A model generated the notes under the pieces. That model ran no database searches. It saw only the letters and a list, made by a program, of their open reading frames with translations, and had not been told where the DNA came from. A program made the position numbers and the translations under genes. 64,000 nt of DNA from Hominimerdicola alba 8 (GTDB taxonomy: Bacteria > Bacillota > Clostridia > Oscillospirales > Ruminococcaceae). The stretch covers positions 186,001-250,000 of the forward strand of contig NZ_ADKM02000062.1 of the NCBI RefSeq assembly GCF_000178155.2, written 5' to 3'. Positions 269 to 56,271 of the stretch are shown one piece after another; positions within the stretch are counted from its first letter, which is position 1; the number at the start of each line of letters is the position of its first letter.

Positions 269-425
269 TGACTATCCCTTTAGCACACCAACTAAAAATG
301 CGGCGAACAAAAGGATAATTGAGCGTTGTATATCTTTCCCCCGCCTGCGGCGGGGGAAAGATATACGCCAAGAATCTTAAGTTCTGTATAGCCGCTGTTT
401 TTGTGGTGTGTCAGCGGGATAACCA
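269..425. repeat. Family 1 dispersed inverted repeat, copy 1 (about 157 bp)
   Basis: The left end reads CTATCCCTTTAGCACACCA. The right end, read on the minus strand, is TTATCCCGCTGACACACC, giving imperfect terminal inverted repeats. The centre (328-366) is an 18-bp perfect GC-rich hairpin with the core CCCCCGCCTGCGGCGGGGG. Related copies are annotated near 6.3, 7.2, 11.0, 23.2 and 56.2 kb, with partial copies near 41.5 and 44.1 kb. It fills most of the gap between the partial gene and argS. No coding capacity is visible. Confidence 0.85.
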
Positions 426-464
426 CATTGTTTTATGATATCTTCCCATATCACCAAAAGAAAA

Positions 465-491
465 ACGGAGTTTCACAGCAGGAAACTCCGT
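465..491 (-). terminator. argS operon terminator
   Basis: On the minus strand ACGGAGTTTC and GAAACTCCGT form a 10-bp stem followed by TTTTTCTTTT. It lies about 25 bp beyond the argS stop. Confidence 0.88.
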
Positions 492-514
492 CTTTGTTAT
501 CTTTTCTCAGTTTA

Positions 515-2284
515 TCACATGCTCTCAGGGCAGTTTATCTTAAGCATACCCAGTATGTTCGCGATTATCTGCTTAACAGCCAGCGAAAGTGACAGTCTTG
601 CCTGCATAACGTTCTCAGGCTCGCCCTTTATGCGGCATGCGTTGTAGAACTTGTGGTACAGTGTCGCAATATCCACCGCGTACTTGGTGACCTTTGCAGG
701 GTCGTAAGCCTTAGCCGCATCGTTTATTGTGGTCGGCAGAGTTGCCATCAGCTTCACCAGTTCCAGTTCTTCCGAAGTGTTCAGCGCCTCAGCCATCTCA
801 TCAGTGAAAGCCTTCGCCTCAACGCCCTCTTCTTTCAGCTTCTTTATTACCGAGCAGATACGCGCGTGTGCGTACTGAACATAGTAAACAGGGTTCTGGC
901 TGGAATTTGAGATGGCAAGGTCAAGGTCAAAGTCGAACTGTGAGTTCGGCTCTCTCAGGTTGAAGAAAAATCTTGCCGCATCTATCGGTATCTCCTCCAG
1001 CAGAGTGTTCAGCGTTATCGCCTTGCCCGAACGCTTCGACAGCTTGTATGTTTCGCCGTTCTTTACAAGTCTTACCATCTGCATGATGACAATATCCAGC
1101 TTCTTCGCATCAACGCCCAGCGCAGTCATAGCCGCCTTTAGTCTTGGTATGTAACCGTGATGGTCAGCACCGAAAATATCTATCGCCTTGTCGAACTTTC
1201 TTTCAGCCAGCTTGTTGTAGTGGTAAGCTATATCAGGCACGAAATAGGTCGGTATACCGTTGTCGCGCACCAGCACCCTGTCCTTTTCATCACCGAATTC
1301 GGTGGTCTTGAACCACAGCGCACCGTCCTGTTCGTAGGTATAGCCGCTCGCTTTCAGCTGTTCGATGACCTTAGCCACCGAGCCGTCATTGTGCAGTGTG
1401 CTCTCCCTGAACCATGTGTCATATTCTATGCGGTACTTTGCAAGGTCGTCATGCAGACCTTGTATGTTCTTGGGCAGTGCATAATCGACCAGAGCCTTCT
1501 TGCAGTCCTCTTCGGGCTGTGCGCTGGCTATCATGCCGTACTCATCAAAGAAATTCTTCGCATGTGCGATTATATCCATGCCCAGATAAACATCGTCAGG
1601 CATCGGGAATTCGGGACGGTTGCCGTCTTCGCCGTATATCTCCTTGCAAAAAGCGTCCAAATCAAGATTTTTCGCAACTATCGCCTGACCCGCCTCACTG
1701 CATATCTGCATGTATCTCAGCCTCAGCGATTTGCCGAACTTCTCTATCTGATTGCCCGCATCGTTTATGTAGAACTCTCTCTCTACCTCGTAGCCCGCAT
1801 ACTCCATAACAGCCGCCAGACAGTCACCTATAGCACCGCCCCTTGCGTTGCCGATGTGCATCGGACCTGTCGGGTTTGCAGAAACGAATTCCACCAGCGC
1901 ACGCTTGCCCTTGCCAAACTCGGTCTTGCCGTAATCAGCGCCCGCATCGAGCACAGCCTTTACCACCGACGCATACCAGCCCTTGTTATAGAAGAAATTT
2001 ATAAATCCGGGACCTGCTATCTCGACTTTCTCAAAGCAGCTGCCCTCAGTCACTATCTTGCCGACTATCGCCTCAGCTATCTTGCGGGGCGCATTGCGGA
2101 AAGGCTTTGCGCACACCATCGCCGCATTGGTGGAAACATCACCGTTCTTTGAGTCAGCGGGTATCTCTATGTTAAAAGCAGGCACAGCCTCCGCAGGGAA
2201 AACGCCCTCTGCCACCAGTGCGCCCATAGCATTCATCACAAGTTCTCTTGCCTGTGTAAATGACTCGTTTATCAGATCATACAT
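515..2284 (-). CDS. argS: Arginyl-tRNA synthetase
   Basis: This class I aminoacyl-tRNA synthetase charges tRNA-Arg with arginine in the cytoplasm. The HIGH signature appears as PTGPMHIGNARG (residues about 139-149), and the KMSKS-like loop as KLSKRSG in the second half, followed by the DALR anticodon-binding domain at the C terminus. The 589-residue length fits the family. I chose the ATG at 2284, which has GGGAGG eight bases upstream; a TTG two codons earlier could extend it. It is the last gene of a ddl-murI-DUF1934-argS operon, 15 bp after the DUF1934 gene, a pairing common in Firmicutes, and is followed by a strong terminator. Confidence 0.97.
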   Translation of the reverse strand: MYDLINESFTQARELVMNAMGALVAEGVFPAEAVPAFNIEIPADSKNGDVSTNAAMVCAKPFRNAPRKIAEAIVGKIVTEGSCFEKVEIAGPGFINFFYNKGWYASVVKAVLDAGADYGKTEFGKGKRALVEFVSANPTGPMHIGNARGGAIGDCLAAVMEYAGYEVEREFYINDAGNQIEKFGKSLRLRYMQICSEAGQAIVAKNLDLDAFCKEIYGEDGNRPEFPMPDDVYLGMDIIAHAKNFFDEYGMIASAQPEEDCKKALVDYALPKNIQGLHDDLAKYRIEYDTWFRESTLHNDGSVAKVIEQLKASGYTYEQDGALWFKTTEFGDEKDRVLVRDNGIPTYFVPDIAYHYNKLAERKFDKAIDIFGADHHGYIPRLKAAMTALGVDAKKLDIVIMQMVRLVKNGETYKLSKRSGKAITLNTLLEEIPIDAARFFFNLREPNSQFDFDLDLAISNSSQNPVYYVQYAHARICSVIKKLKEEGVEAKAFTDEMAEALNTSEELELVKLMATLPTTINDAAKAYDPAKVTKYAVDIATLYHKFYNACRIKGEPENVMQARLSLSLAVKQIIANILGMLKINCPESM

Positions 2285-2299
2285 TTTCAATTCCTCCCT

Positions 2300-2737
2300 T
2301 TATCTCGGTCTTACTTCTACTTCTATCTCAAAAACTCCCACCAGACTTGAATTAACATCAACCACGTAGGAGAAAGCCAGTTTTCCGCCGTTTTCGTCCA
2401 GCTTGACAGCTATCTTCTGCGCCTCGACCCCGACTTCAAAATTGCCGTACTGTGTGCCATAGATGCAGTGATGCTTCTCGCCCATTTCAATGACCATATT
2501 CGAGGTAACGTTCCCCGTTCTCGCCATGACCACCTTTGTATCCCCAAAACTTTCAAGCCTTGTCACACAGCCATCAAAGCCCGTAGCTTCGCTCTCTTCA
2601 TACTCAACAGCAAAGCCGTTCTCAGTAGCTTCCAGCGTCCCCAGCGACATTATCTCTGTCATCTCAGGTTCACTGCCCCGCTCTTCAAACTGTCGGCTCA
2701 CCAGCCTTATATCGACTTCCCTCTTATCCAACTTCAT
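2300..2737 (-). CDS. DUF1934 family beta-barrel protein (YwiB-like)
   Basis: This 145-residue protein matches the DUF1934/YwiB pattern: a charged N terminus (KREVDIRLVSRQ), the conserved TEIMSLGTLEATENGFAVEYEES stretch, then alternating strands ending YVVDVNSSLVGVFEIEVEV. Family members are small cytoplasmic beta barrels of unknown function, encoded next to argS in many Bacilli and Clostridia, as here. Spacing is 12 bp after murI and 15 bp before argS, so co-transcription is likely. The start ATG follows GGGAAAGGAAA. The sequence itself reveals no catalytic residues. Confidence 0.85.
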   Translation of the reverse strand: MKLDKREVDIRLVSRQFEERGSEPEMTEIMSLGTLEATENGFAVEYEESEATGFDGCVTRLESFGDTKVVMARTGNVTSNMVIEMGEKHHCIYGTQYGNFEVGVEAQKIAVKLDENGGKLAFSYVVDVNSSLVGVFEIEVEVRPR

Positions 2738-2749
2738 TTTCCTTTCCCG

Positions 2750-4643: not shown

Positions 4644-4683
4644 AACAAAACGTCCTTTCATGAAAATATTAACTCAATTTAAT

Positions 4684-4712: not shown

Positions 4713-4826
4713 ACGATTATCCCGAATAATAAAAATTTTACATTTCCGTATACTTCCCCGACCTGCCGATTTAAGAGCATTCATAAACACTTTGCAGAAT
4801 ATTCTCCAACAGCATCATCAAGCATT

Positions 4827-4929
4827 TATAGCGATCCAACTATTTAAATTCACAAGATCAGGTCGCTAAAGCTCGGATCTATGGGTTTTGTGACCGGATT
4901 TTGTCTGAATTTTAAGGCGGATTGATATA
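4827..4929 (-). repeat. Family 2 MITE-like element, copy A (103 bp, reverse orientation)
   Basis: The element begins TATAGCGATCC and ends GGATTGATATA, a slightly decayed version of the perfect TATAGCAATCC inverted ends of copies C and D. Internally it has the paired stretches GACCGGATTTTGT and its degraded partner. All four copies in the window (5939, 41606, 55274) are exactly 103 bp. Confidence 0.85.
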
Positions 4930-4958
4930 GTTAATAATATAAAATATTATGTATACTA

Positions 4959-4987: not shown

Positions 4988-5008
4988 CCTTTTAAGAGGT
5001 GACACCAA

Positions 5009-5443
5009 ATGAAAATTATCCGAGCCGCCACCACTGCCGCGCGGGCAGGCGCATATTACGTGCGCATACAGGCTATGGCAAAGAAATATCACATCACGCT
5101 GGAAGAAGAGTTTGACGAGCACGACACTCCCGATACGAAGTACATCGTTATCCTTGATGATGACTTCCCTGTTGCCACCTGCCGCCTTTATGCCGTTAAC
5201 GAAAATACCGTCATGCTTGGCAGAGTGGTCGTTCTGCCCGAATATCGCGGCAAAGGCATCGGCAGACTTGCCGTCCGCTCCGCAGAAGAATGGTCAGCCG
5301 AACTGGGCTTCACCATTGCCACTCTTGAAAGCCGCGAGGAAAAAGTCGGTTTCTACGAAAAACTCGGCTACACTGCCGATTTTTCAAAAGTCATCAGCGG
5401 CGGAACTTTCCGCTGTATCCATATGGAAAAAGCACTTACATGA
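5009..5443 (+). CDS. GNAT family N-acetyltransferase (ElaA/YjcF type)
   Basis: This 144-residue cytoplasmic protein has the GNAT core: a strand pair IVILDDDFPVATCRLYAV, then LGRVVVLPEYRGKGIGRLAV, where RGKGIG is the acetyl-CoA pyrophosphate loop, and a C-terminal KVGFYEKLGYTADF motif B. The substrate is unknown; the compact architecture resembles YjcF/ElaA-type acetyltransferases. GAGGTG lies 8-10 bases before the ATG. It has its own promoter and stands 43 bp upstream of an unrelated small gene, which may be co-transcribed. Confidence 0.88.
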   Translation: MKIIRAATTAARAGAYYVRIQAMAKKYHITLEEEFDEHDTPDTKYIVILDDDFPVATCRLYAVNENTVMLGRVVVLPEYRGKGIGRLAVRSAEEWSAELGFTIATLESREEKVGFYEKLGYTADFSKVISGGTFRCIHMEKALT

Positions 5444-5486
5444 TATCCCCGCACCAACAGCACCTAAAATAAGGAGGTCCCACACT

Positions 5487-5870
5487 ATGGCACTATCCAC
5501 CGAACCGTTCATGCTTGACGGCGACAGCATGATAAATAAATACTACCACAGGCACGACCTGCTGAACGGCGCATGGGTCACGCTGAAAAGCGATTTTTCA
5601 CTGTACATAAGCGGCTTTGACTACACCATGCGTGCCTACGATAAAGGCGAACTCACAGCCCGCTTCCGGTTTGATACAGAAGGCACACAATCTGATTTTC
5701 CGCTTTGCATCATGGGTACTGAAAAACTCACAGACCATAGTGGCGAACCGCTGTTCATACTGAATGATATGCACTTTTCAAACGGCACCATCACAGCCCA
5801 TCTTTCCCGTCTGCCGGAAAACTCCCCCATCACCATAGAACTTGTCAGGGCAAGCAATGTTCAGGAGTAG
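5487..5870 (+). CDS. Hypothetical protein, 127 residues
   Basis: I do not recognise a family. The start at 5487 is set by a perfect AAGGAGGT ten bases upstream; a longer open frame from 5112 has no ribosome site and overlaps the GNAT gene. The protein is acidic, without signal peptide or membrane span, and has many short beta-like stretches (AWVTLKSDFSLYISGFDY, ITAHLSRLPENSPITIELV), suggesting a small soluble beta-rich domain. It ends with a TAG. It lies 43 bp downstream of the GNAT gene on the same strand. Family 2 copy B begins 68 bp after it. Confidence 0.7.
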   Translation: MALSTEPFMLDGDSMINKYYHRHDLLNGAWVTLKSDFSLYISGFDYTMRAYDKGELTARFRFDTEGTQSDFPLCIMGTEKLTDHSGEPLFILNDMHFSNGTITAHLSRLPENSPITIELVRASNVQE

Positions 5871-5938
5871 CACCTGCTGTAATTGTCAGTATGGCTATTC
5901 CTCTGACACACAATATTAAACATCTTTTCAGCGGACAT

Positions 5939-6041
5939 TATAGCAATCCGCCTTAAAATTCAGACAAAATCCAGTCACAAAATCCATAGTTCCGAGCTTT
6001 TGCGACCGGATTTTGTGAATTTAAATAGTTGGATCGCTATA
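5939..6041 (+). repeat. Family 2 MITE-like element, copy B (103 bp)
   Basis: Starts TATAGCAATCC and ends GGATCGCTATA, with inner arms ACAAAATCCAGTCAC and GACCGGATTTTGTGAAT. It is flanked by degenerate family 1-like sequence (CTATTCCTCTGACACAC near 5894) and by a GC-rich module at 6063-6081. Confidence 0.88.
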
Positions 6042-6209
6042 ATAATAGTTGGTGGTTCTCATTCCCCGCCGCAGGCGTGGAAAGAAAACATCTCAATAAA
6101 TGTTTCTTGTTGTCCCTTTATTCTTAAATTGTAAGTACTGCATAAAAAATCCCCTGAAAATTTTGTTGTGTTCTTCCTTACGATTTCCTTAACATTCTGC
6201 CGTACAGTG

Positions 6210-6238
6210 TTGCATTTGGTCAAAAGCTGTGTTATTAT
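6210..6238 (+). promoter_or_regulatory. Candidate sigma-A promoter upstream of family 1 copy 2
   Basis: TTGCAT (6210-6215) and TATTAT (6233-6238) with 17 bp spacing. A transcript from here would carry both family 1 copies at 6.3-6.5 kb in its leader before reaching the zinc-ribbon gene. Confidence 0.6.
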
Positions 6239-6258
6239 ATTAGTTATAGAACGACATA

Positions 6259-6382
6259 TGACTATCCCTTTAGCACACCAGCTGAAAATGCTGTAAACAA
6301 AAGGATAATTGAGCACCATACGCCAACCACCTTAAGTTCTGTAAAACCGCCGTTTTTGTGGTGTGTCAGCGGGATAACCACG
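6259..6382. repeat. Family 1 dispersed inverted repeat, copy 2 (short form, about 124 bp)
   Basis: Left end CTATCCCTTTAGCACACCA and the continuation ACAAAAGGATAATTGAGC match copy 1 closely. The right end, read on the minus strand, has TTATCCCGCTGACACACC. The central GC hairpin of copy 1 is absent, so this is an internally deleted form. Confidence 0.85.
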
Positions 6383-6391
6383 TTAAAAAAT

Positions 6392-6500
6392 ACGGCTATC
6401 CCTTTAGCACACAGGCTTAAAATGCAGTAAAAAGATAGCATCAACACGATTTTTCATTGTTATACGGCACTTTGTATCGGTGTGTTAAAGAGATGACCAT
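6392..6500. repeat. Family 1-related element, copy 2b (both ends of the CCCTTTAGCAC type)
   Basis: The left end CTATCCCTTTAGCACACAG begins 10 bp after copy 2. The right end GGTGTGTTAAAGAGATGACC is the inverted counterpart of the same end type, as at the right edge of the 56.2 kb copy. It lies in the leader of the zinc-ribbon gene. Confidence 0.65.
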
Positions 6501-6546
6501 GTCATCAGAAAGAAAAAGTATAAGAACAATTTCAGGAGGCGATAAG

Positions 6547-7128
6547 ATGGGAAGCCGTGAAAACGGATACATCAATTACGGCGGATATAACGCCAATTTG
6601 CAGGGTACATATCCTTCTCGTCAGAACTACAACATACCACCACAGACATTTGGAAGCGGCAACATCCCGATGATGGTGCATGACACGCACAGCATCGACC
6701 TTAAATGCCCTAACTGTATGGGCAACAGGATACTCGACAATGCGAACATGGTGCTGAAATGCCCCTACTGCGACAGCAGAGAGGTCATACCCGCCGAACT
6801 TATCTCAGACTAAAGAAGACTCTTCGGCATACCCGAACCCGCACCGCAGTTTGTACAGCCCAACCAGCCCAACAACTGGCAGCCCGTCCAACAGAATTAT
6901 CCGCCCTATTACTCACGCCCGATGGGTGTTCCGCAAGGCGGCTATGTACCATACACGAAGCCCCGCAAAAGGCGCACATTGCTCTGGATTTTGGGTTGGC
7001 TTTTCATCTTCCCGCTGCCGCTGACCATACTTCTTCACCGCAGCAGAAAACTCCCCGCCGCAGTAAGGTATCTGCTTATCTTTATCGCATGGATAATCTA
7101 TTTTAATTTTAATATGATGAATATGTGA
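6547..7128 (+). pseudogene. Zinc-ribbon membrane protein interrupted by an in-frame TAA
   Basis: The start at 6547 has CAGGAGGC seven bases upstream. Codons 1-88 encode a polar N terminus and a four-cysteine zinc ribbon (Cys54, 57, 72, 75: CPNC and CPYC). TAA at 6811-6813 ends that frame, but the same frame continues for 105 codons as RRLFGIPEPAP, a Pro/Gln/Asn-rich linker and two hydrophobic helices (LLWILGWLFIFPLPLTILL, YLLIFIAWIIYF) to TGA at 7128. Zinc ribbon plus linker plus paired membrane spans is one coherent architecture, so I read this as one gene with a nonsense mutation. The first 88 residues could still be made as a truncated soluble ribbon. Function unknown. Confidence 0.7.
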
Positions 7129-7139
7129 TAAAAAAGAAT

Positions 7140-7293
7140 ATGGTTATCCCTTTAGCATACCGCCACAAGTGCTGTTTAATATGGAATCACCGTGTTTATA
7201 TTATTCCCCCCGCCTGCGGTGGGTGGAAGGATGATCGATAACTATTTCAAATTCTGATATAACAATGATCGATTTGGTGTGTCAGCGGGATAT
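7140..7293. repeat. Family 1 dispersed inverted repeat, copy 3 (about 154 bp)
   Basis: Left end TTATCCCTTTAGCATACC, right end (plus strand) GGTGTGTCAGCGGGAT, with a GC-rich centre CCCCCCGCCTGCGGTGGG. It begins 12 bp after the stop of the zinc-ribbon gene. Confidence 0.82.
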
Positions 7294-7319
7294 CTAAAAA
7301 AAGAATATCATCTTCATCA

Positions 7320-7356
7320 AGACACTTCCTGCCTTTCGGCGGAAGTGTCTTTTTTC
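7320..7356 (+). terminator. Rho-independent terminator after family 1 copy 3
   Basis: AGACACTTCC pairs with GGAAGTGTCT around TGCCTTTCGGC, followed by a T run. It separates the zinc-ribbon gene from the dockerin gene. Confidence 0.88.
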
Positions 7357-7496
7357 CGCTCTGCATGGGGCTTTTATCATAAAATTTTTCAATACATACT
7401 GTTTCTTAATAAAATGTTAAACTATTCAGCATTTTAATATGCTATAATTTGTAGGAATAAGTACCTTTCTCCCATTTCAGAACAGGAGGATCTCAC

Positions 7497-8945
7497 ATGA
7501 AAAAGACAAGTGCAAAATTTCTTGCTGCTGCGGCTGCGCTCTCACTGATGATGCAGACTGCTGTCATCGCAAGCGCGGACAGCGCATCAGCCGAACAGAA
7601 CGATATATCTGCACAGATAATAACAGAAACAGACAGCCTTGCCACCGATGAGGAAGATATCTCAGATGGCGATACCACCGATGGCGAATATGCACGCGGA
7701 GATGTCAATAACGATGGCAGAGTCAATGTCACCGATGTTTCAAGGGCGGCGGCGCACATAAAATCTGTCAAGCCGCTGGACGATAAAGCGCTCAAAGCCG
7801 CCGATGTCAACCTTGACGGCTCGGTAAATGTCACCGACCTCAGTACACTCGCCGCACATGTCAAAGGCATGCGTGCTATGGACTGGCTCGAAAAGCTGGA
7901 AACTGTCCCCGATGAGGAAATAGTCACAAAAACATCAGCTTATAAAAAACTCGATGATATAATCACCCTCAAAAAAGACCTTACCGTCAGCTGGGGCGAG
8001 GTGGACGGTGCCGCCGAATATGATGTAAACATCATAATAAACGGCAGGGAGAGAACTCTCCTGTCAAACGGCAATAAATCTTCCCGCAAAATAACAGCAG
8101 ACATGCTGGGCAATGCAGACTTCGCCACCGTAAAGGTCAGCCCCTACAAGTATTACAATACTCCCACAAAACAGGGTGTCAGAAGCTACCTCGACGGCTA
8201 TGAATTCGATATACTGATAAAACCCGCAGACCTCAAAGGCAGTCTTAAAACGGAACATACCCGCCCGCTGTCTGTGTCGCTCAGCTGGCAAGCCGCTGGC
8301 GATGCTGAGTTCTATGAAGTCTACTGCACCGTTGACGGTAAGGAGAAACTATTCAAAAGGGTAAACACCACAAACTGCACCATGCAGGTGCTCGCAGATA
8401 AAGACTACAGCTTCCGCGTAAAAGCTGTCAACGACATCGCGCGCGATGGCAAGACCACTACGCTCACTTCCGATAACTCGCTGACCGCAGAACTGCATAC
8501 ACTGCCCTATTACGAACTAGCCGCAAAAGTACTCGACCGTGTCGGCTGGGACTTAAGAGCCGCTTTTAACTGGAGCAGTTCGGCTCTGCCCTATTACTCT
8601 ATGAATCAGGACGGTTCATGGGGCATGGAGGGCTATGCGGATTTCGGCTTCTTAAATGGCAAGGGCAACTGCTACGTAATGGCGGCGACTTTCTGCGAAA
8701 TGGCTAAAATGCTGGGCTATGATGCCCACCAGATAGCAGGCTACACACTGAACGCCTATAATCAGAACCCTCACGACCATTCATGGGTCGAGATAGATAA
8801 CTACAACGGTTCGGGCATCACATATATATTCGACCCCGACCTCACCAATGAACGAGGAGCTGAGGGATTTGCGATACTGTACCGTTCACCGGGCTCGTAT
8901 AATTACGATATAAACCACCTGTTTAATACAAGAAGGATAAGCTGA
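7497..8945 (+). CDS. Secreted transglutaminase-like protein with N-terminal dockerin
   Basis: A signal peptide (MKKTSAKFLAAAAALSLMMQ...ASA) is followed by an acidic linker and a complete type I dockerin at residues about 68-128, with two calcium loops (DVNNDGRVNVTD, DVNLDGSVNVTD). Two fibronectin III-like segments follow (about 150-340), then a transglutaminase-like core with Cys392 in GNCYVMAA, His428 in HDHSWVEI and Asp446 in IFDPD, the expected triad. Such folds act as cysteine peptidases, transglutaminases or peptide-N-glycanases, so the reaction is open. The dockerin would attach it to a cohesin scaffold; its place near the N terminus is unusual. AGGAGG precedes the ATG, and TATAAT lies at 7443-7448. 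Confidence 0.85.
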   Translation: MKKTSAKFLAAAAALSLMMQTAVIASADSASAEQNDISAQIITETDSLATDEEDISDGDTTDGEYARGDVNNDGRVNVTDVSRAAAHIKSVKPLDDKALKAADVNLDGSVNVTDLSTLAAHVKGMRAMDWLEKLETVPDEEIVTKTSAYKKLDDIITLKKDLTVSWGEVDGAAEYDVNIIINGRERTLLSNGNKSSRKITADMLGNADFATVKVSPYKYYNTPTKQGVRSYLDGYEFDILIKPADLKGSLKTEHTRPLSVSLSWQAAGDAEFYEVYCTVDGKEKLFKRVNTTNCTMQVLADKDYSFRVKAVNDIARDGKTTTLTSDNSLTAELHTLPYYELAAKVLDRVGWDLRAAFNWSSSALPYYSMNQDGSWGMEGYADFGFLNGKGNCYVMAATFCEMAKMLGYDAHQIAGYTLNAYNQNPHDHSWVEIDNYNGSGITYIFDPDLTNERGAEGFAILYRSPGSYNYDINHLFNTRRIS

Positions 8946-9823: not shown

Positions 9824-9824
9824 T

Positions 9825-10980: not shown

Positions 10981-11230
10981 AGTAAACGACATTAAAAATT
11001 ATGGTTATCCCGCTGATACACCACAAAAAACAACGATTTTACAGAACTTAAGGTGGTCGGCATATCTTTCCCTCCCCCTGCGGCAGGTAAAGATATACGC
11101 CAGCCACCTTAAATTCCGTTAAGCCACATCATAATATCAACTTTTAAAATGGTGTGCTATTCAGCGCTCACAGCCACAAAAATAACAGCGTCAGTGAGCG
11201 CTGAATGTAGAAATAAATATGTCGTTTACT
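10981..11230. repeat. Family 3 repeat copy 1 with interleaved family 1 element
   Basis: The outer ends AGTAAACGACAT (10981-10992) and ATGTCGTTTACT (11219-11230) are perfect 12-bp inverted repeats. The right half contains the core hairpin ATTCAGCGCTCAC / GTGAGCGCTGAAT. A family 1 element lies between the left end and the core. This composite fills most of the gap between the acyltransferase and EAL genes. Confidence 0.75.
11001..11158. repeat. Family 1 dispersed inverted repeat, copy 4, inside family 3 copy 1
   Basis: The left end TTATCCCGCTGATACACC and the following CAGAACTTAAGGTGG match the reverse complement of the right arm of copy 1. A decayed GC hairpin lies at 11063-11100. The right end is cut short at GGTGTGCTA, where family 3 sequence resumes. 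Confidence 0.8.
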
Positions 11231-11287
11231 ATAAAAATAGCTATAAATCATTTTAACACGGCAAAGCCTTCCTTATCAATATACAAA

Positions 11288-23215: not shown

Positions 23216-23457
23216 GTGTAGTTATCCTGCTGACACACCACAAAACAGCGTTTTATTGCAAACGACAAGTATTTCAGTACATTCAGCGCTCACAGCCGCA
23301 CGCATTCGGCACAGTAAATGCTGAGCACCGTGTCTGCGGGCGCTGAATGCAGAAATATAATAAATGTTTCGTTTACCATAACAGTCAGTGACGGTGGTTT
23401 TCACCGAAAAGATGACCTGCCGTTATTTTAAGCGGTGTGCTGAAAGGATGATCTGCA
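23216..23457. repeat. Family 1 element copy 5 split by family 3 copy 2
   Basis: The left end TTATCCTGCTGACACACC (23222-23239) and right end GGTGTGCTGAAAGGATGATC (about 23434-23453) are family 1 ends. Between them lies family 3 copy 2. A second degenerate right end (GAAAAGATGACC) precedes the last one. Confidence 0.72.
23258..23377. repeat. Family 3 repeat, copy 2, inside family 1 copy 5
   Basis: Ends GCAAACGACA and TGTTTCGTTTACC are inverted, and the core ATTCAGCGCTCACAGCC with GGGCGCTGAATG matches the 11.2 kb copy. Confidence 0.75.
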
Positions 23458-30284: not shown

Positions 30285-33188
30285 TTAGCCGAGAGGCTTG
30301 ATGCCCTTGACATAAGCCGCCAGCAGTGAGATATCAGAAACGTTTACCTTGCCGTCGCCGTTGATGTCAGCGCATTTCATTTCGTCATCGTCCAGCTTCT
30401 TGACAGATTTTACGTAAGCCGCTATCCTCGAAACATCGGTGACATTGACTTTACCGTCGCCGTTGACATCGCCCTTTCTGCTCTCATCGGCAGTGGTGTC
30501 GCCGTCCTTCGGCTCAGTTTCATCGTCTGTTGGCTGAGTGTCGGCAGGCTTTGGCTCGTCTTCGTCCTCAGTAGGCTCGGTGTCGGCGGGCTTTGGCTCG
30601 TCTTCGTCCTTAGTAGGCTCGGTGTCTGTGGGCTTATCCTCGTCAGCGGGCTTATCTTCATCTTCGGGCTTGGTGCTGTAAGTAAAGGTCAGTTCGGTTG
30701 TATAGCCTGCCGACTTTACAGCAACTTCAAAGCTGTCGCCCTCAGCAAAGGGTGATGCTTCTGTATCGAGAGTGCCGTCTGCCTTGATTATCACAGTTGC
30801 TCTCTTGCCGCTTGCGGAGTACTCGGTACCGTTAACGCTCACTGCGGTGATGTTCCTGATGTAAGCTGCAAGCTGCTCGTCAGTGAAGCCCTCAGCTGTT
30901 GTCAGCGATACAGACTCCTTATCGTAAGCCGCAGGCATATCGGCAGTAGTAAGGGCGAATGTTGCTTTTGCAGACTCGTAAACGCCGTTTTTGTCAGACA
31001 TTACCAGTGTGTATTCGCCCGGCTGTGCATCAGTGAAGAACACTGCGCTGTCGCTGAAACCGCAGTCAAGACCCTCTACAGAGTAAACTGCATCGTAGTC
31101 TTCGGGCTTTTCGGTGACAGTTATGGCTGTCTTGCCGGCAGTTGCCTCTGCATCTTCAACAGAAACGGGTGTTTCCTTGTACTTATAGAACTTCTTTGGG
31201 AGGTAGGTATCAGTCTTTGCCGAAACCACGCCGTTTTCGGTGATATATACTATCTCGGTGACGGTTGCACCATCAGTTGGCAGGAACGACTGATATTCCA
31301 GCGGGTTGCCCTTGCCGTCATCGGTCAGGTAACCTACCGACCACGAAAGTTCGTTTCTCCAGATATTCTGCTCGTGTCTGAGCGCATAGCTGTTGCCGTC
31401 TGCGGTCTTGATGATAACGCCGTAGATAACGCCTAAGTCAGATGCTTCCTTGACGGTGAGCATGTAGTCGCCGCGCTTGGTGTCGGTTTCGACTTTTGGT
31501 GATATCTCTATGCTTTCAGGCTCACTGTCTGTTACTTCTGCGAAAGTTACAGCACCGTCCTTTACAGTGACTATCTTGTAAGCCGCAGGCTTATCCTCGC
31601 TTGCCGCGAAGCTGTACTGCTCACCTATCTCAGCAGCAGCAGACCTTGTAACAGCCACAGGGTAGGTCACGCCGTAAATCTTGCCGACTGTGTCACTGCC
31701 TTCTTCGCCTGCGTTGTTGTAGGTGCCTTCAAAAAGTTCGCCCTTGCCGTTTTTGGTGGTCTTGGTAACGGTAGCGGAACTTACAGCGTCAAGGCAGCTG
31801 TCATTGGGGGCTTCCTTAAGTTCAGCGGCATAGAACTCGGCATAAGGGATATTCATGGTGCCGTAAACGAACTTGCTGTAGGTGAAACTCAGCTTATTCT
31901 CAAAGCCTGTTGCTGTCACTTCTATCTCGTAGCTGTCCTTGTTGTCGGCAAAAGGCGCTGCGCTGTCGATGATAACACCGTCAGTGCCGACTATTTTTGT
32001 GGCACCTCTGCCGCTTGCGGAATAAGCCTTTCCTTCAACGCTTACGGAAGAGATGTTCTTTATGAAATTGTTCAGGTCTTCCTCTGTGAAGCCCTCTGCG
32101 GTGGTAAGAGCGCCCTTTTCGTCATCATATACCGCAGGCATGTCAGCGGTGGTCAGCTGGAATGATGCTGACAGGTCGGCGTACTTGCCGTTTGCGTCCT
32201 TTACAGTCAGTGTGTAACTGCCCGCAGAAGCATTCTCAAAGGTGAAGCTGTCGCCGTAAAACTGTGCTTCAAGACCCTCTACCGAATAATCTGCCTTATA
32301 ATCGGCAGGTACGCCGTCCTTGACGATATCAGCCTTGCCCGCAGAAACAGCGGTATTTGCCACGCTCACGCCGCCATCGAACTTAACGGGGATATAGACA
32401 TTGCCCACATCAACGGTAACATAGCCGTCAGCGGTGATGAACTGTACATCGGTGACTGTCTTGCCCATAAGTGTAACAAAGTTCTCGTATTCGAGATAGT
32501 TGCCATGAGCTTCGACTGTCTTTATGCCCGATGACCACGAAAATTCGCCGCCGCGCCATATGTTCTGTTCGTGTCTGAGGGCATATTTGCCACCGTCAGC
32601 CGTGTCGATGATGATGCCGTAGATGATACCTGACGGCTTGTCTGTAACATTCAGCAGGTAATCGCCCCAGGGAGTAGATGTGCTTAGTTTTGCACTGCCC
32701 TCGACTGTTTCGGGCGCACTGTCTATGACCTTTGAAAAAGTCACATTTCCGCCGCTGACAGTTGCCTGCTTATAGCTGACAGGCTGTGCGGTCAGTTCAG
32801 CGAAACCATAGTTGTTCTCGCCCAGCGCATCAAGGTCTGCCTTAGTGATGGCAACAGGGTATACAACGCCGTAAATTTTTGCCTTTATCTCGTTGCCTGC
32901 GCCGTTCACACCTGCATCGGTGACTGCTTCGCTCCACGCGCCCTCAAACATCTGACCTGCGCCTGTCATCAGCGATTTGCGGTCAGTAGCCGATGACACG
33001 GCATCAAGTACATTGACATTTGAAGCGCCCTCAAGTTCAGCCGCATAAAACTCGGCATAAGGTATCTTCATAGTACCGTACAGCACCTCATCGCCTGTTG
33101 CCGCATCTGCAATGATATTCATCGGCAGGGCACTCGCAGCCAGTGCTGCGCACACGGTAAGTCCCAGTATTGACTTTGCTTTCTTCAT
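30285..33188 (-). CDS. Large secreted dockerin protein with two Tp47-like repeats
   Basis: 967 residues: signal peptide to about 30, two homologous units of about 400 residues (36-438 and 440-835), an acidic Asp/Glu/Pro/Thr linker with 14-residue tandem repeats (DEDEPKPADTEPT), and a C-terminal dockerin (DVNGDGKVNVTD, DINGDGKVNVSD). Each unit starts YGTMxIPYAEFYAAEL and LDAVSSAT, then YGVxYPVAxT, ALRHEQNIWR, and a TTADMPAxYD domain. From memory this resembles the penicillin-binding Tp47 domain family found in Clostridia; I hold that loosely. It has no recognisable glycosidase site, so it may be a binding or scaffold component. GGAGAG precedes the ATG. Confidence 0.75.
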   Translation of the reverse strand: MKKAKSILGLTVCAALAASALPMNIIADAATGDEVLYGTMKIPYAEFYAAELEGASNVNVLDAVSSATDRKSLMTGAGQMFEGAWSEAVTDAGVNGAGNEIKAKIYGVVYPVAITKADLDALGENNYGFAELTAQPVSYKQATVSGGNVTFSKVIDSAPETVEGSAKLSTSTPWGDYLLNVTDKPSGIIYGIIIDTADGGKYALRHEQNIWRGGEFSWSSGIKTVEAHGNYLEYENFVTLMGKTVTDVQFITADGYVTVDVGNVYIPVKFDGGVSVANTAVSAGKADIVKDGVPADYKADYSVEGLEAQFYGDSFTFENASAGSYTLTVKDANGKYADLSASFQLTTADMPAVYDDEKGALTTAEGFTEEDLNNFIKNISSVSVEGKAYSASGRGATKIVGTDGVIIDSAAPFADNKDSYEIEVTATGFENKLSFTYSKFVYGTMNIPYAEFYAAELKEAPNDSCLDAVSSATVTKTTKNGKGELFEGTYNNAGEEGSDTVGKIYGVTYPVAVTRSAAAEIGEQYSFAASEDKPAAYKIVTVKDGAVTFAEVTDSEPESIEISPKVETDTKRGDYMLTVKEASDLGVIYGVIIKTADGNSYALRHEQNIWRNELSWSVGYLTDDGKGNPLEYQSFLPTDGATVTEIVYITENGVVSAKTDTYLPKKFYKYKETPVSVEDAEATAGKTAITVTEKPEDYDAVYSVEGLDCGFSDSAVFFTDAQPGEYTLVMSDKNGVYESAKATFALTTADMPAAYDKESVSLTTAEGFTDEQLAAYIRNITAVSVNGTEYSASGKRATVIIKADGTLDTEASPFAEGDSFEVAVKSAGYTTELTFTYSTKPEDEDKPADEDKPTDTEPTKDEDEPKPADTEPTEDEDEPKPADTQPTDDETEPKDGDTTADESRKGDVNGDGKVNVTDVSRIAAYVKSVKKLDDDEMKCADINGDGKVNVSDISLLAAYVKGIKPLG

Positions 33189-41495: not shown

Positions 41496-41502
41496 GTGAG
41501 GA

Positions 41503-41590
41503 TACACACCGCTGACACGCCGCAAAACAGCAGTTTTACAGAACTTAATGTGGTAAACAAAACTCTCAGCGCTCCTTTTGTTTACCACAT
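41503..41590. repeat. Partial family 1 copy 6 carrying a family 3-like hairpin
   Basis: ACCGCTGACACGCCGCAAAA and CAGAACTTAATGTGG match one arm of family 1 (compare 11003-11055). From 41548 a 15-bp perfect stem (ATGTGGTAAACAAAA with its complement ending at 41590) encloses CTCAGCGCT, resembling a minimal family 3 element. The other family 1 end is missing. Confidence 0.65.
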
Positions 41591-41605
41591 TTTCAGCCTG
41601 TATGC

Positions 41606-41708
41606 TATAGCAATCCGCCTTAAAATTCAGACAAAATCCAGTCACAAAACCCATAAATCCCAGCTTTTGCGACTGGATTTTGTGAATTTAAAAAGTTGGA
41701 TTGCTATA
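41606..41708 (+). repeat. Family 2 MITE-like element, copy C (103 bp)
   Basis: Starts TATAGCAATCC and ends GGATTGCTATA, perfect 11-bp inverted ends; inner arms ACAAAATCCAGTCAC and GACTGGATTTTGTGAAT. It lies 16 bp after the family 1/3 composite. Confidence 0.9.
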
Positions 41709-41769
41709 AATGGATAGTCATAAAAGCAAAAAATGCTACTAATTGTTGCGAATTTGCTAATATTGTTGC

Positions 41770-41855: not shown

Positions 41856-42863
41856 ATGAAAAAGACGATAGCGATTCTGGCGGCGCTGGTAATGACACTG
41901 GGCGGTGCGGCTTATCTGCCGATGCAGGAGTTTTCTGCGGGTGCTGTACTGACTGCAAGCGCGGCAACAGGTGAGTTCACTGAGGGTGCTTACCAGTACA
42001 ATGTCAAGGCTGACGGCACTGTGGTGATAGAAAATTACACAGGCAGTGAAGCAACTGTGAAGATACCCTCGACACTGGGCGGAAAGACCGTGACTGAGAT
42101 AGGCGAACGTGCTTTCGCGCTTAACCGCAGTATTGTCACTGTAAACATTCCCGACACTGTCAAGGTACTGGGCGACCACGCTTTCTTCCTCTGCTACTCG
42201 CTGACCAATATCAGCATACCTGACAGCGTCACAACTGTGAAAAATTCGTGCTTCTGGGGCGATGACAGCCTTGTGAGCGTCAGCATGCCCGATTCTGTAA
42301 CAGATATGGAAGCACTGGTATTCGCTGACTGCAAGAACCTCAGATATGTTAAACTGCCTGCGGGTCTTGAAGAACTGCCCGGCTACACATTCAACAAGTG
42401 CCCGTCACTTACAAGATGCGATATCCCTGAGGGTGTTAAAAGGATAGGCGGAAACGCATTTATAGACTGTACATCGCTGAAAGCACTGTTAGTACCTGCC
42501 GGTGCTTCGATAGATGACTATGCTGTAGGTTTTGGATACAACGGCGATACCATACAGAATATCGAGGGTTTCAAGATGTATGTTTATCAGAACTCCCCTG
42601 CTGAGGAATATGCAAAGAACTTCTCGGTGCCTTATGTGTACTATGAGGGTCAGCCCATACCTGAGTTTGAAACAAAGGGCGATATCAACGATGACGGCAA
42701 GGTGAATGTCACCGATGTTTCAAAGATAGCGGCACATGTAAAGGGCGTTAAGTCGCTGGACAGTGCAGGCATTTCAAAGTCTGATGTGAACGGTGACGGC
42801 AAGGTGAATATCACCGATGTATCGAAGATAGCGGCTCAGGTAAAGGGCATAAAGAAGCTGTAA
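41856..42863 (+). CDS. Secreted BspA-type leucine-rich repeat protein with dockerin (paralogue 1)
   Basis: 335 residues: signal peptide (MKKTIAILAALVMTLGGAAYL), then about seven LRR_5/BspA-type repeats (TEIGERAFALNRSIVTVNIPDTVKVLGDHAFFLCYSLTNISIPDSV...) from about 50 to 230, a spacer, and a C-terminal dockerin (DINDDGKVNVTD, DVNGDGKVNITD). The repeats are non-catalytic and usually bind proteins or glycans; the dockerin would display them on the cellulosome. AGGAGAG precedes the ATG. A second, related gene lies 146 bp downstream on the same strand. Confidence 0.9.
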   Translation: MKKTIAILAALVMTLGGAAYLPMQEFSAGAVLTASAATGEFTEGAYQYNVKADGTVVIENYTGSEATVKIPSTLGGKTVTEIGERAFALNRSIVTVNIPDTVKVLGDHAFFLCYSLTNISIPDSVTTVKNSCFWGDDSLVSVSMPDSVTDMEALVFADCKNLRYVKLPAGLEELPGYTFNKCPSLTRCDIPEGVKRIGGNAFIDCTSLKALLVPAGASIDDYAVGFGYNGDTIQNIEGFKMYVYQNSPAEEYAKNFSVPYVYYEGQPIPEFETKGDINDDGKVNVTDVSKIAAHVKGVKSLDSAGISKSDVNGDGKVNITDVSKIAAQVKGIKKL

Positions 42864-43009: not shown

Positions 43010-44053
43010 ATGAAGAGAATAGCGGCATTCACACTGGCACTGACTGTAATATTCGGCGGGGCGGCTTATCTGCCATGTGCAGTGGACAGCGGTGCGATAG
43101 TGGCACACGCAGAAAATTCAACAGGTGCATTCGTTATAAACGAATTTGGCAACGGAACATGCTCCATCAAAAAGTGTGTCAGCCCCAATACCGAGAACAT
43201 TGTAATACCCGAAACGATCTTCGGCAACACAGTGGTCGAGATAGATGAGAACGCATTTATGTTCCATAAGAACATGAAAACAGTAGTTATACCCGATACC
43301 GTTAAGATAATACATGAGGGCGCATTTTACAGCTGTTATGAACTGACATCAGTGCAGATGAGCAAAAATGTTGAGGTACTGGAAGACCAGGCTTTCTTTG
43401 ACTGCACTAAGCTCAGCTACATAAACATACCTTCATCTGTCATGTATATTGGCAGGATATGCTTTGCGAACACTGCGTTGAAGAACGTCACCATACCGAG
43501 TACACAGACTGTACTGGGCAGTGAACTTTTCTCAGGCTGTAAGGATCTCGAAACGCTGGTACTGCCCTCAAAGCTGGACAGCATACCGCAGTCGATGTGC
43601 TATGACTGCCCGAAACTGAGAAGCGTGACCATTCCCGATGGTCTGTGCTATATCTCTGACGAAGCATTTCGCGGATGTACCGGTCTTAAATCGCTCACCA
43701 TACCCGCAAGTGTGCAGAATGTGGGCTATTATGCCATCGGCTTTGATATCAACACGCAGAAAGACAGCGGCTTTACTGCCAGAGTCACAGCAGGCACAGC
43801 GGGCGAAACTTATGTCAAGCAGAACGGACTGAACTACGTTTACGCAGGCGGAAGCAGCGGCGGCGCAGGCGATGTGAACAGTGACGGCAAGGTGAATGTC
43901 ACCGATGTTTCAAAGACTGCGGCACAGGTAAAGGGCGTTAAGTCGCTGGACAGCGCGGGCAAATCAAAGGCAGATGTGAACGGCGACGGCAAGGTGAATG
44001 TCACCGATGTATCGAAGATAGCGGCTCAGGTAAAGGGTATAAAGAAGCTGTGA
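43010..44053 (+). CDS. Secreted BspA-type leucine-rich repeat protein with dockerin (paralogue 2)
   Basis: 347 residues from the ATG at 43010 (GGAAGGA upstream). It has the same plan as the upstream gene: signal peptide, BspA-type repeats (VEIDENAFMFHKNMKTVVIPDTVKIIHEGAFYSCYELTSVQM...), dockerin at the C terminus. The dockerin DNA is nearly the same as in paralogue 1, while the repeats differ clearly. A 23-bp hairpin (42920-42943) and a shorter one (42975-42989) lie between the genes; neither has a good T tract, so co-transcription is possible. Confidence 0.9.
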   Translation: MKRIAAFTLALTVIFGGAAYLPCAVDSGAIVAHAENSTGAFVINEFGNGTCSIKKCVSPNTENIVIPETIFGNTVVEIDENAFMFHKNMKTVVIPDTVKIIHEGAFYSCYELTSVQMSKNVEVLEDQAFFDCTKLSYINIPSSVMYIGRICFANTALKNVTIPSTQTVLGSELFSGCKDLETLVLPSKLDSIPQSMCYDCPKLRSVTIPDGLCYISDEAFRGCTGLKSLTIPASVQNVGYYAIGFDINTQKDSGFTARVTAGTAGETYVKQNGLNYVYAGGSSGGAGDVNSDGKVNVTDVSKTAAQVKGVKSLDSAGKSKADVNGDGKVNVTDVSKIAAQVKGIKKL

Positions 44054-44095: not shown

Positions 44096-44120
44096 GTGGT
44101 ATGTCGGCGGGATAGCCGTA
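44096..44120. repeat. Family 1 end remnant
   Basis: The minus strand reads GGCTATCCCGCCGACATACC, close to the TTATCCCGCTGACACACC end type. It also forms a 10-bp inverted repeat with CGCCGACATA at 44070-44079. Confidence 0.5.
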
Positions 44121-53492: not shown

Positions 53493-53530
53493 GCCACTGC
53501 ACTCCTCTCATACATATTGTATAGTTTAGC

Positions 53531-54337: not shown

Positions 54338-55197
54338 TTGGCGCTCTTCCTCCCCAGCCTGTCAAGCAGCAGACTGCTGCCGAATTTAACTGTATAAACG
54401 TCTTCGCCCATATCAAAGCCCATAGCTTTCAGGCGGCTGAACACGCGGGTTACCTGCGGTACTGCAAGACCCATCTTTTCAAGTTCAGCCGAACGGTGGA
54501 ACACCTTTGCGGTATCATCATAGCAGAACAGCTTTGAGTCGTTCATGACCAGTATCTTATTGACATTGCGGGCGATGTCCTCCATCGAATGTGATACCAG
54601 CAGGACGGTATTGCCCTTAGCCTTATGGTACTCCTTTATCATACCAAGTATCTGTTCGCGTCCTTTCGGGTCAAGACCCGATGCAGGTTCATCGAGGATA
54701 AGCACTTCGGGTTCCATAGCCATAACGCCCGCGATAGCTACGCGGCGCTTCTGTCCGCCCGAAAGTTCAAAAGGCGATTTCTGCATCACGCTGTCGGAAA
54801 GTCCCACCAGCTTTGCAGTTTCTTTTATACGGCGGTCTATCTCTTCCTCATCAAGCCCCATATTCTTTGGACCGAAGGCGATATCCTTATAAACCGTTTC
54901 CTCAAAAAGCTGATATTCGGGGTACTGGAACACCAGCCCCACCTTGAAGCGAATGGATCTGAGCCGCGCCTTGTCGTCCCAGAGGCGTTCGCCGTCTATA
55001 TACACCGAACCGCTCGTTGGTTTCAGCAGTCCGTTAAAATGCTGTATCAGCGTGGATTTTCCTGAGCCTGTATGCCCTATCACGCCCGCAAAGTCGCCCT
55101 TTTCTATCTCTAAATTCACATGGTCTACCGCGACCTTGCGAAAGGGCGTGCCGTCACCGTAAACGTAGGTGAGGTCTTCGGTTTTTATTACTGCCAT
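54334..55197 (-). CDS. ecfA2: ECF transporter ATPase EcfA2
   Basis: 287 residues with Walker A GHTGSGKST, Q loop VFQYPEYQLFEETVYKDIAFGPKN, signature LSGGQKRRVAIAG, Walker B EVLILDEPASGLDP and the switch His in LLVSHSMED. The C-terminal ECF-type extension follows. It pairs with EcfA1, which is encoded 1.1 kb upstream instead of adjacent, because a fic gene and repeats lie between. Confidence 0.95.
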   Translation of the reverse strand: MAVIKTEDLTYVYGDGTPFRKVAVDHVNLEIEKGDFAGVIGHTGSGKSTLIQHFNGLLKPTSGSVYIDGERLWDDKARLRSIRFKVGLVFQYPEYQLFEETVYKDIAFGPKNMGLDEEEIDRRIKETAKLVGLSDSVMQKSPFELSGGQKRRVAIAGVMAMEPEVLILDEPASGLDPKGREQILGMIKEYHKAKGNTVLLVSHSMEDIARNVNKILVMNDSKLFCYDDTAKVFHRSAELEKMGLAVPQVTRVFSRLKAMGFDMGEDVYTVKFGSSLLLDRLGRKSAK

Positions 55198-55273
55198 TTT
55201 ACTTTCTCCGTCTATGGCTCAGGTCTTTGCGCCCGAAGCCTTTATATCCTTATAGGTCAGATATGACCTGTCA

Positions 55274-55376
55274 TATAGCAATCCGCCTTAAAATTCAGAC
55301 AAAATCCAGTCACAAAATCCATAGAGCCGAGCTTTTGCGACTGGATTTTGTGAATTTAAATAGTTGGATTGCTATA
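55274..55376 (+). repeat. Family 2 MITE-like element, copy D (103 bp), overlapping the fic 3' end
   Basis: Starts TATAGCAATCC and ends GGATTGCTATA, perfect ends; inner arms ACAAAATCCAGTCAC and GACTGGATTTTGTGAAT. Its right 21 bp encode the end of the fic gene on the minus strand. Confidence 0.92.
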
Positions 55377-56084
55377 GTCTATCCTGAAATAGTCAAGCAC
55401 TGCCTTCATGCTTTCCTGCGAGGCGAGGAAGACATTTATCAGCCGCTCATCACTGCCCTCAGTCTGCCATTCCTTCAAGCCCATATAATAGAACATTTTA
55501 TCGTTATCATCGATATAGAAAGGTATGATGCCGTTTTCAAGGCACTGTTTAAAAATTATCAGTCTGCCCGTTCTGCCATTGCCGTCATAGAAAGGGTGTA
55601 TCTGTTCATACCTTACATGGAACTCAGCTATATCATAAAGGCTGAGTTTTCTGCCGCTGTATCTGTCAAGCAGAGCGTGCATCTTGTCTGAAACAGCTTC
55701 GGGAGAAGCTGTCAGCATACCGCCGACTTCATTCGGCTCTCGCTTATATTCGTCTATGACTGCGTATTCATCAAAGACACCGTTTTTCAGCCTGCGGTGC
55801 AGATCTTTTATAAAATCTTCGGTAAGCGGTCTGCCCAGTGTATCAAGTATATGGTCAAAACATCGGAAATGGTTGACAGTTTCAACTATATCATTGACCC
55901 GCACAGTGTTTTCTGCGGTGACACCCACTGTTTTTGTTTCGTAGATATACCTCGTCTGGTCATGGGTAAGCCTGCTTCCCTCGATATGGTTTGAGTTATA
56001 GGCAAAATCTACCTGCATTTTATTATAAATGCCGCCCCTGTGTCCTGCGCGTTTTTCGGCAAGCAGTTTTTCAGTGATGTCCAT
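55356..56084 (-). CDS. Fic domain protein (AMPylase type)
   Basis: 242 residues. The Fic active site HPFYDGNGRTGR (163-174) is intact, so transfer of AMP (or another nucleotide moiety) to a target hydroxyl is plausible. The inhibitory motif SNHIEGS (31-37) fits (S/T)xxxE(G/N) at the N terminus, the self-inhibited class. No antitoxin gene is adjacent. The gene sits between ecfA1 and ecfA2, with a family 1 element upstream and family 2 copy D downstream; the last residues SNPTI and the TAA come from copy D, so the original C terminus was replaced or trimmed. Confidence 0.93.
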   Translation of the reverse strand: MDITEKLLAEKRAGHRGGIYNKMQVDFAYNSNHIEGSRLTHDQTRYIYETKTVGVTAENTVRVNDIVETVNHFRCFDHILDTLGRPLTEDFIKDLHRRLKNGVFDEYAVIDEYKREPNEVGGMLTASPEAVSDKMHALLDRYSGRKLSLYDIAEFHVRYEQIHPFYDGNGRTGRLIIFKQCLENGIIPFYIDDNDKMFYYMGLKEWQTEGSDERLINVFLASQESMKAVLDYFRIDYSNPTI

Positions 56085-56109
56085 ATTACCTCACTTATTA
56101 TTAAAAAAT

Positions 56110-56271
56110 GTGATTATCCCGCTGATACACCAAAATAAACGATGTTATATCGGGAACCAAATACAGTTGGCGGTTATCTTTCCCCCGCCTGCGGCGGGGG
56201 AAAGATAACATCAACTCAGTTTTTCCTCATTGATAAAGGTATTTTGCAGTGGTGTGCTAAAGGGATAGTCA
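56110..56271. repeat. Family 1 dispersed inverted repeat, copy 8 (about 162 bp)
   Basis: Left end TTATCCCGCTGATACACC, right end TGGTGTGCTAAAGGGATAG, and a perfect central hairpin (56173-56209) with the core CCCCCGCCTGCGGCGGGGG identical to copy 1. It fills the gap between ecfA1 and fic. Confidence 0.88.

What the first reader, a model, noticed from the sequence alone, without database searches (positions are those of the whole stretch)
269..56271. Family 1: dispersed 155-160 bp elements with two distinct, related inverted ends
The sequence shows at least six near-complete copies (269, 6259, 7140, 11001, 23216, 56110), one double-ended variant (6392) and partial copies (41503, 44096). One end reads CTATCCCTTTAGCACACCA, the other TTATCCCGCTGACACACC; these pair as imperfect terminal inverted repeats. 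Several copies hold a central GC-rich hairpin CCCCCGCCTGCGGCGGGGG (copies 1 and 8 have the same core); copy 2 lacks it. All lie between genes. I do not know this family from published repeats. It could be a non-autonomous transposable element, a REP-like family mobilised by a distant transposase, or a structured RNA module.
Basis: seen in the sequence. Interest (0 to 1): 0.72.

Follow-up and report, generated by a model that had tools for sequence, protein, structure and literature searches.

The report
Miniature transposons scattered through Ruminococcus genomes
These 126-165-base repeats are miniature transposons that carry no gene and were copied to a couple of hundred places in a Ruminococcus genome, most likely by the enzyme of a known bacterial jumping-gene family (IS1595); the kind is known, and this family was not found described in the papers searched.

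Summary
The end motif occurs 400 times in the window's own 4.05-Mb genome (5 for the reversed control). In 86 distinct paired copies from own-genome loci, 49 have a perfect 8-bp AT-rich target duplication and 10 match 7 of 8; chance pairing predicts about 1.4 of 86 at 7 or more. Two copies have precise empty orthologous sites in a relative, and a third sits in another repeat whose sister copies lack it. In Ruminococcus albus 7 similar ends with 8-bp duplications (12 of 15 elements checked) bound a 1,023-bp insertion sequence with an IS1595-family transposase. Family 1 is therefore a non-autonomous miniature transposon (MITE), most likely moved by an IS1595 transposase. The own assembly shows only truncated or interrupted transposase copies. 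Two size classes (about 126 and 161 bp) differ by a central palindrome; arms of two subfamilies are swapped in 3 of 86 copies. A structured-RNA function is not supported. An IS1595 MITE of the same build is in print (Haloquadratum walsbyi, 165 bp, DR 8; PMC3852290), so this is a new, high-copy member of a known kind.

The parts
267..427 (+). Family 1 copy, subfamily A, 161 bp, with central palindrome; 8-bp duplication TTGTTTTA on both sides
6257..6382 (+). Family 1 copy, subfamily A, 126-bp class without central palindrome; no duplication (3/8)
6391..6501 (+). Family 1 diverged copy, 111 bp, 8 bp after the previous copy; no duplication (4/8)
7139..7298 (+). Family 1 diverged copy, right terminus altered (5/8 at the standard boundary); AAAAAGAA on both sides if shifted
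11000..11159 (-). Family 1 incomplete copy; one end cut at GGTGTGCTA where another repeat (ATTCAGCGCTCACAGCC...) begins
23217..23456 (-). Family 1 diverged copy, 240 bp, containing another repeat; no duplication (2/8)
56109..56273 (-). Family 1 copy, subfamily B, 165 bp, with central palindrome; duplication 7/8
41499..41722 (-). Family 1 copy split by a Family 2 element (41608-41706); outer limits approximate
5890..5940 (-). Family 1 one-ended remnant beside a Family 2 element (5941-6039); right limit set by that element
44098..44120 (+). Family 1 single-end relic

Best explanation
Family 1 is a gene-less miniature transposon (MITE). Shown: two related but distinct terminal inverted repeats of about 24 bp (left TATGACTATCCCTTTAGCACACCA, right YGTGGTTATCCCGCTGACACACCA), duplication of 8 bp of AT-rich target DNA at most copies examined, a preference for A-N8-T targets outside ORFs, and sites that are filled in one genome and empty in a relative. 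Shown for the proposed partner: in R. albus 7 a 1,023-bp IS with similar ends and mostly 8-bp duplications encodes a 291-aa IS1595-family transposase (zinc ribbon plus DDE domain). Inferred: a transposase of this type binds both MITE ends in trans and inserts the element elsewhere. Also inferred: amplification in bursts; loss or gain of the central ~35-bp palindrome between its ATA repeats, giving the 126- and 161-bp classes; and recombination at the palindrome, giving the arm-swapped copies.
For: Copy number: 40 of 265 candidates were scored; 38 of them cover nearly the whole query and 2 cover 33/34-166. End hits 400 against 5 control. Duplications: 49 of 86 perfect, 10 of 86 at 7/8; random pairing gives 0.19% and 1.48%; shifting one boundary by 1 to 4 bp drops the 7-or-more count from 59 to 6 or fewer; 48 of the 49 perfect duplications are distinct. 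Empty sites: L032:11697 and L166:490 against G024, about 95% identity over about 300 bp, and a paralogous one for L158:689. Pfam DDE_Tnp_IS1595 1e-21 and Zn_ribbon_IS1595 1.4e-10; NCBIfam IS1595 transposase 1.3e-47. Representative MITE ends match the representative IS end at 20 and 19 of 24 positions, and each other at 17. The R. albus 7 record names the gene IS1595 family transposase. Co-occurrence: 6 of 8 end-rich genomes of the genus have a transposase hit against 3 of 21 others (Fisher p 0.004, kinship not corrected).
Against: The own genome, with about 200 copies, shows only broken transposase: four protein matches and two PF12762 matches, all on one contig; one frame lacks residues 1-57, the other copy has a stop and a large insert. 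G002 and G020 carry the ends without a transposase hit. Draft assemblies lose repeated IS, so absence is weak evidence. I found no IS with one TTTAGC-type and one GCTGAC-type end. By eye the IS and the MITE share only their ends. 24 of 86 copies match the duplication at 5 or fewer of 8 positions and 3 at 6. Not all IS copies show duplications: three G023 elements score 3, 1 and 4 of 8, two G005 elements 6 and 4, a G027 element 2, and the split own-genome copy 4. No transposition was observed.
Confidence: 0.92

Rival explanations
1. A MITE mobilised by a different, unseen transposase that also makes 8-bp duplications; the R. albus IS has similar ends by shared ancestry only.
For: End identity to the IS is 19-20 of 24, not perfect; no intact matching IS found in the own assembly; G002 and G020 carry ends without any IS1595 hit.
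Against: Same duplication length, similar AT-rich targets and co-occurrence in the clade; R. albus 7 holds both the IS and 162-165-bp MITEs with two different end types and 8/8 duplications (6 of 6: L059, L064, L065, L066, L068, L069).
Confidence: 0.06
2. A structured RNA module or regulatory hairpin kept by selection at each site.
For: Palindrome-bearing copies fold into one long hairpin (z -10.5, -6.8 and -5.9 for three copies); the central stem shows paired changes; a stable hairpin lies beside a T-rich duplication somewhat more often than at control sites.
Against: The one 126-bp copy folded gives z -1.5; the covariation term is only -0.51 and two-sided changes sit in the palindrome alone; the three arm-swapped copies break a pair; gene contexts are mixed; no Rfam match at the gathering score; some sites are empty in a relative.
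Confidence: 0.015
3. A REP/BIME-like palindrome served by a RAYT (Y1 HUH) enzyme.
For: Dispersed, mostly intergenic, palindromic.
Against: 8-bp target duplication and empty sites with one target copy; ends resemble those of a DDE-transposase IS. RAYT genes were not searched for.
Confidence: 0.005

Closest known systems
IS1595 MITE of Haloquadratum walsbyi, listed under ISHwa6 (PMC3852290; one table passage seen)
   Same: IS1595 family, 165 bp, IR 25, DR 8
   Different: 7 copies in an archaeon; here about 200 in the own genome and 380 in G024 (half the end counts), with two subfamilies and a central palindrome that one size class lacks; sequences not compared
IS1595-family IS of Ruminococcus albus 7 (WP_013483548.1, plasmid pRUMAL01)
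   Same: 19-20 of 24 end positions (representative ends), 8-bp AT-rich duplication, same genus
   Different: 1,023 bp with a transposase gene; by eye only the ends are shared
ISApl4, IS1595 family (PMC12561309; passages seen)
   Same: A/T-rich 8-bp direct repeats, many in non-coding DNA, 39 copies
   Different: Autonomous, 712 bp, 14-bp ends starting GGGG
REP/BIME, ERIC and Correia-type repeats (recalled, not tested)
   Same: Dispersed intergenic palindromic repeats
   Different: Recalled as having different ends and enzymes

Membership tests
MITE (miniature inverted-repeat transposable element) | Short, no transposase gene | tested here: met
   17 of 86 copies are 126-127 bp and 49 of 86 are 158-165 bp; longest closed frame median 39, maximum 64 codons with generous starts, copies flagged for Family 2 left out
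MITE (miniature inverted-repeat transposable element) | Terminal inverted repeats | tested here: met
   17 of 24 positions between the two representative ends
MITE (miniature inverted-repeat transposable element) | Fixed-length target duplication | tested here: met
   8 bp; 49 of 86 perfect, 59 of 86 at 7 or more, 24 of 86 at 5 or fewer
MITE (miniature inverted-repeat transposable element) | Empty sites with one target copy | tested here: met
   Two orthologous and one paralogous among 86 copies searched against held loci only
MITE (miniature inverted-repeat transposable element) | Multiple dispersed copies | tested here: met
   400 end hits against 5 control
IS1595-family derivative | Ends shared with an autonomous IS1595 element | tested here: met
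   19-20 of 24 with the R. albus 7 IS, representative ends
IS1595-family derivative | 8-bp AT-rich direct repeats | tested here: met
   The 8 bp left of each copy are 92% AT against 62% further out
IS1595-family derivative | Partner encodes IS1595 DDE domain and Zn ribbon | tested here: met
IS1595-family derivative | Ends beginning with GG (reported for eukaryotic Merlin in PMC8101967; ISApl4 ends begin GGGG) | tested here: not met
   Ends here begin mostly T or C then ATG or GTG; the passages read do not give GG as a rule for every IS1595 group
IS1595-family derivative | Mobilised in trans by that transposase | not testable with these tools
   Needs an assay
Structured RNA | Compensatory changes across helices; curated family | tested here: not met
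   4 of 30 predicted pairs have two-sided changes, all in the central palindrome (48 copies); no Rfam match at the gathering score
REP element | Associated RAYT (Y1) transposase | not tested
   Not searched; target duplications speak against it

The most novel reading that the evidence does not exclude
The CCCCCGCC-GGCGGGGG palindrome is an exchangeable module rather than part of one transposon: it sits in the middle of at least two otherwise different repeat families here, its centre occurs in both orientations, a whole size class lacks it, and subfamily arms are swapped across it. MITE arms in these genomes would then be shuffled at shared palindromes into new transposable combinations.
Probability: 0.15. 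Interest if true: 0.5.

Novelty: new member of a known kind. Interest (0 to 1): 0.3.

Why it matters
It explains a conspicuous repeat in intergenic DNA of R. albus-clade genomes (about 200 copies in the own genome and about 380 in one relative, by halving end counts), points to a testable enzyme partner in a named laboratory strain, and warns annotators against reading these hairpins as RNAs or terminators. The MITE/IS pair could be tested as a natural mobilisation system in rumen bacteria.

Tried and rejected
Composite-IS idea: two end pairs about 1.3 kb apart (L018 4330-5672, L022 1946-3296) looked like an autonomous element, but the frames between them, read by eye and not searched, look like ordinary genes; I treat them as separate copies. 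Terminator-tract targeting: 17 of 86 copies have a hairpin of -8 kcal or better beside a T-rich duplication against 14% of 400 control sites, and 15 of 86 against 9.5% at -10; a weak excess, not pursued. Gene context: 21 convergent, 33 tandem, 16 divergent, 10 at a locus edge, 6 overlapping an ORF; no clear bias. Window sites including copy 1 and 57868 were looked at for empty sites in G024; the flanks are too diverged to use. Another spanning match (L033:2944) has gaps at the junction and was not counted. Plasmids: one record, R. albus 7 pRUMAL02, two places. Viral contigs: no exact match to one 20-base end. Literature: IS1595+MITE (12 papers, listing), Ruminococcus+miniature inverted-repeat (1, listing, unrelated title), IS1595 family and duplication terms (722 at two terms, 15 listed), R. 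albus+transposase+IS1595 (0), R. albus+insertion sequence (12, 10 listed), IS1595/non-autonomous terms (96, 12 listed): no listed title or abstract start describes this family; passages were read in three papers only, and the held library is open-access. The 86 copies come from 67 own-genome loci (window included), mostly chosen from the first 100 places listed and the matches, so they favour intact ends; of 228 end hits in those loci, hits without a facing partner within 330 bp, or too near a locus edge, and repeats of the same copy were left out.
Full report
What is there. Both end motifs lie at the stated coordinates. A DNA search of the window's own genome (4,052,160 bases, 136 contigs) with copy 1 gave 265 candidates, of which 40 were scored; 38 of the 40 best matches cover nearly the whole query and 2 cover 33/34-166. 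The end pattern TATCCCKYTRRCACACC with up to 2 mismatches has 400 hits; the reversed pattern has 5. Among 61 genomes (own plus 60 relatives) clear excess is seen in 8 of the 29 of the same genus (own included): G024 765, G000 400, G020 171, G023 154, G027 93, G005 54, G002 31, G012 25; each of the other 53 has 8 or fewer, and controls run from 0 to 8. The G023 count includes IS ends. A DNA search with copy 1 matched 13 of 61 genomes, all in one genus.

Anatomy. I collected 86 distinct paired copies from 67 own-genome loci. Seventeen are 126-127 bp and 49 are 158-165 bp; the other 20 range from 82 to 262 bp. With the element taken to start 6 bases outside TATCCC, the flanking 8 bases match perfectly in 49 of 86, at 7 in 10, at 6 in 3 and at 5 or fewer in 24; random pairing of flanks gives 0.19% and 1.48% for 8 and 7. 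Shifting one boundary by 1 to 4 bp leaves 6 or fewer copies at 7 or more. The 8-mers are 92% AT against 62% further out. Among the 49 perfect cases 48 duplications are distinct; the base before is A in 37 and the base after is T in 42, so the target is roughly A-N8-T.

Site polymorphism. Joining the flanks of each of the 86 copies minus one duplication and searching held loci gave precise empty orthologous sites in G024 for L032:11697 (95.0% over 302 columns; one base differs in an A-run next to the target) and L166:490 (94.7% over 300; a 12-base gap lies 16 bases away). A paralogous one was found too: L158:689 sits in another repeat family, many copies of which lack it and carry the target once. 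In one search the two G024 matches around L032:9046 overlap by 9 bases, which points to another empty site; I did not align it. Some sites are shared: the G024 match to L033 runs through the copy at L033:3144.

Partner. In G023 similar ends recur about 993-996 bp apart. Of 15 such elements (1,022-1,025 bp, most 1,023), 12 have 8/8 duplications and three have 3, 1 and 4 of 8. Elements of this size in other genomes score lower (G005 6 and 4, G027 2), and the split own-genome copy scores 4. Typical ends are (C/T)ATGGTTATCCCTTTAACACACCACA. The copy in L050 encodes a 291-aa protein with Pfam DDE_Tnp_IS1595 and Zn_ribbon_IS1595 and NCBIfam IS1595 family transposase. Contig lengths identify G023 as Ruminococcus albus 7: its C2 (352,646) is NC_014825 and its C1 (420,706) is NC_014824, where the gene is annotated as IS1595 family transposase. 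R. albus 7 also has 162-165-bp MITEs, 6 of 6 with 8/8 duplications. Passages of PMC8101967 say that IS1595 members are usually flanked by 8-bp duplications, and passages of PMC12561309 report A/T-rich 8-bp repeats for ISApl4.

State of the transposase. A protein search hit 10 of 61 genomes, 9 of them in the genus. In the own genome all four matches are on contig C113: one frame lacks residues 1-57 and is preceded by other sequence; the other three matches are pieces of a copy with a stop codon that is interrupted by about 2.8 kb of other DNA, which by eye resembles an IS21-type pair of genes (not searched). PF12762 finds two matches in G000, one in G024, none in G002 or G020. Four of the G024 matches lie at contig ends, so IS copies there may have broken the assembly; absence in drafts is weak evidence. 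In the genus, 6 of 8 end-rich genomes have a transposase hit against 3 of 21 others (Fisher p 0.004, kinship ignored).

Internal structure. By arm similarity 58 of 86 copies are A-A (three flagged for Family 2, one of these at 126 bp probably falsely), 11 are B-B, 3 are B-A swaps, and 14 could not be assigned at one or both arms. In the swaps the change of arm lies across the central palindrome. The palindrome's middle occurs as TGC (25) and as its reverse complement GCA (6) within subfamily A. The 126-bp class looks like the 161-bp class minus the stem, joined at an ATA shared by both sides (read from the sequences; inference). Mean identity of A copies to their majority sequence is 94% (55 copies).

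RNA reading. Copy 1 folds into one long hairpin (z -10.5 as RNA; -9.2 as DNA); a B copy gives -6.8 and an arm-swapped copy -5.9, but a 126-bp copy only -1.5. In an alignment of 48 palindrome-bearing copies the covariation term is -0.51; 4 of 30 predicted pairs show two-sided changes, all in the palindrome. Palindrome arms can stay matched without selection on an RNA, so this does not support an RNA function. Rfam gives no match at the gathering score in the window.

Place among known things. PMC3852290 lists an IS1595 MITE in Haloquadratum walsbyi: 165 bp, 7 copies, IR 25, DR 8 (one passage seen). The kind is therefore known. I saw no description of this family in the listings. What stands out is the copy number, the two distinct ends, and the palindrome across which arms are exchanged.

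Noticed in passing
window 5941-6039, 41608-41706, 55276-55374 and about 4826-4930: Family 2: a 99-bp near-palindrome TAGCAATCC...GGATTGCTA flanked by TA on both sides in 21 of 47 pattern hits in own loci (the 47 include chance hits). It splits several Family 1 copies and looks like a separate TA-target miniature transposon.
   Followed up: partly
L002:494-606, L022:5862-5970, L033:6873-6975, L131 (three places), many listed G002 matches: A third repeat of about 100 bp (TCCCAATTTTGATGTGTATTGCTGATGATAC...ACAACCAAATTGGGA) with its own CCCCCGCC-GGCGGGGG core; a copy of it holds the Family 1 insertion at L158:689.
   Followed up: partly
window 11159-11245 and 23251-23400; also L034, L019/L004, L022: A fourth repeat with ATTCAGCGCTCAC...GAGCGCTGAAT arms lies at the end of one Family 1 copy and inside another.
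   Followed up: no
L130 (G000:C113), about 5425-8210: The own-genome IS1595 copy is interrupted by about 2.8 kb that looks by eye like an IS21-type element (not searched).
   Followed up: no
G024:C33:31101-31160, C130:2-61, C159:1-60, C167:3-374: Pieces of the IS1595 transposase lie at contig ends, suggesting collapsed IS copies in that assembly.
   Followed up: no
window 7698-7881, 25310-25493, 30301-30473, 42678-42861, 43868-44051: Diverged repeats of about 180 bp inside or near long frames; by recall they look like dockerin repeats of cellulosome-type proteins (not searched).
   Followed up: no
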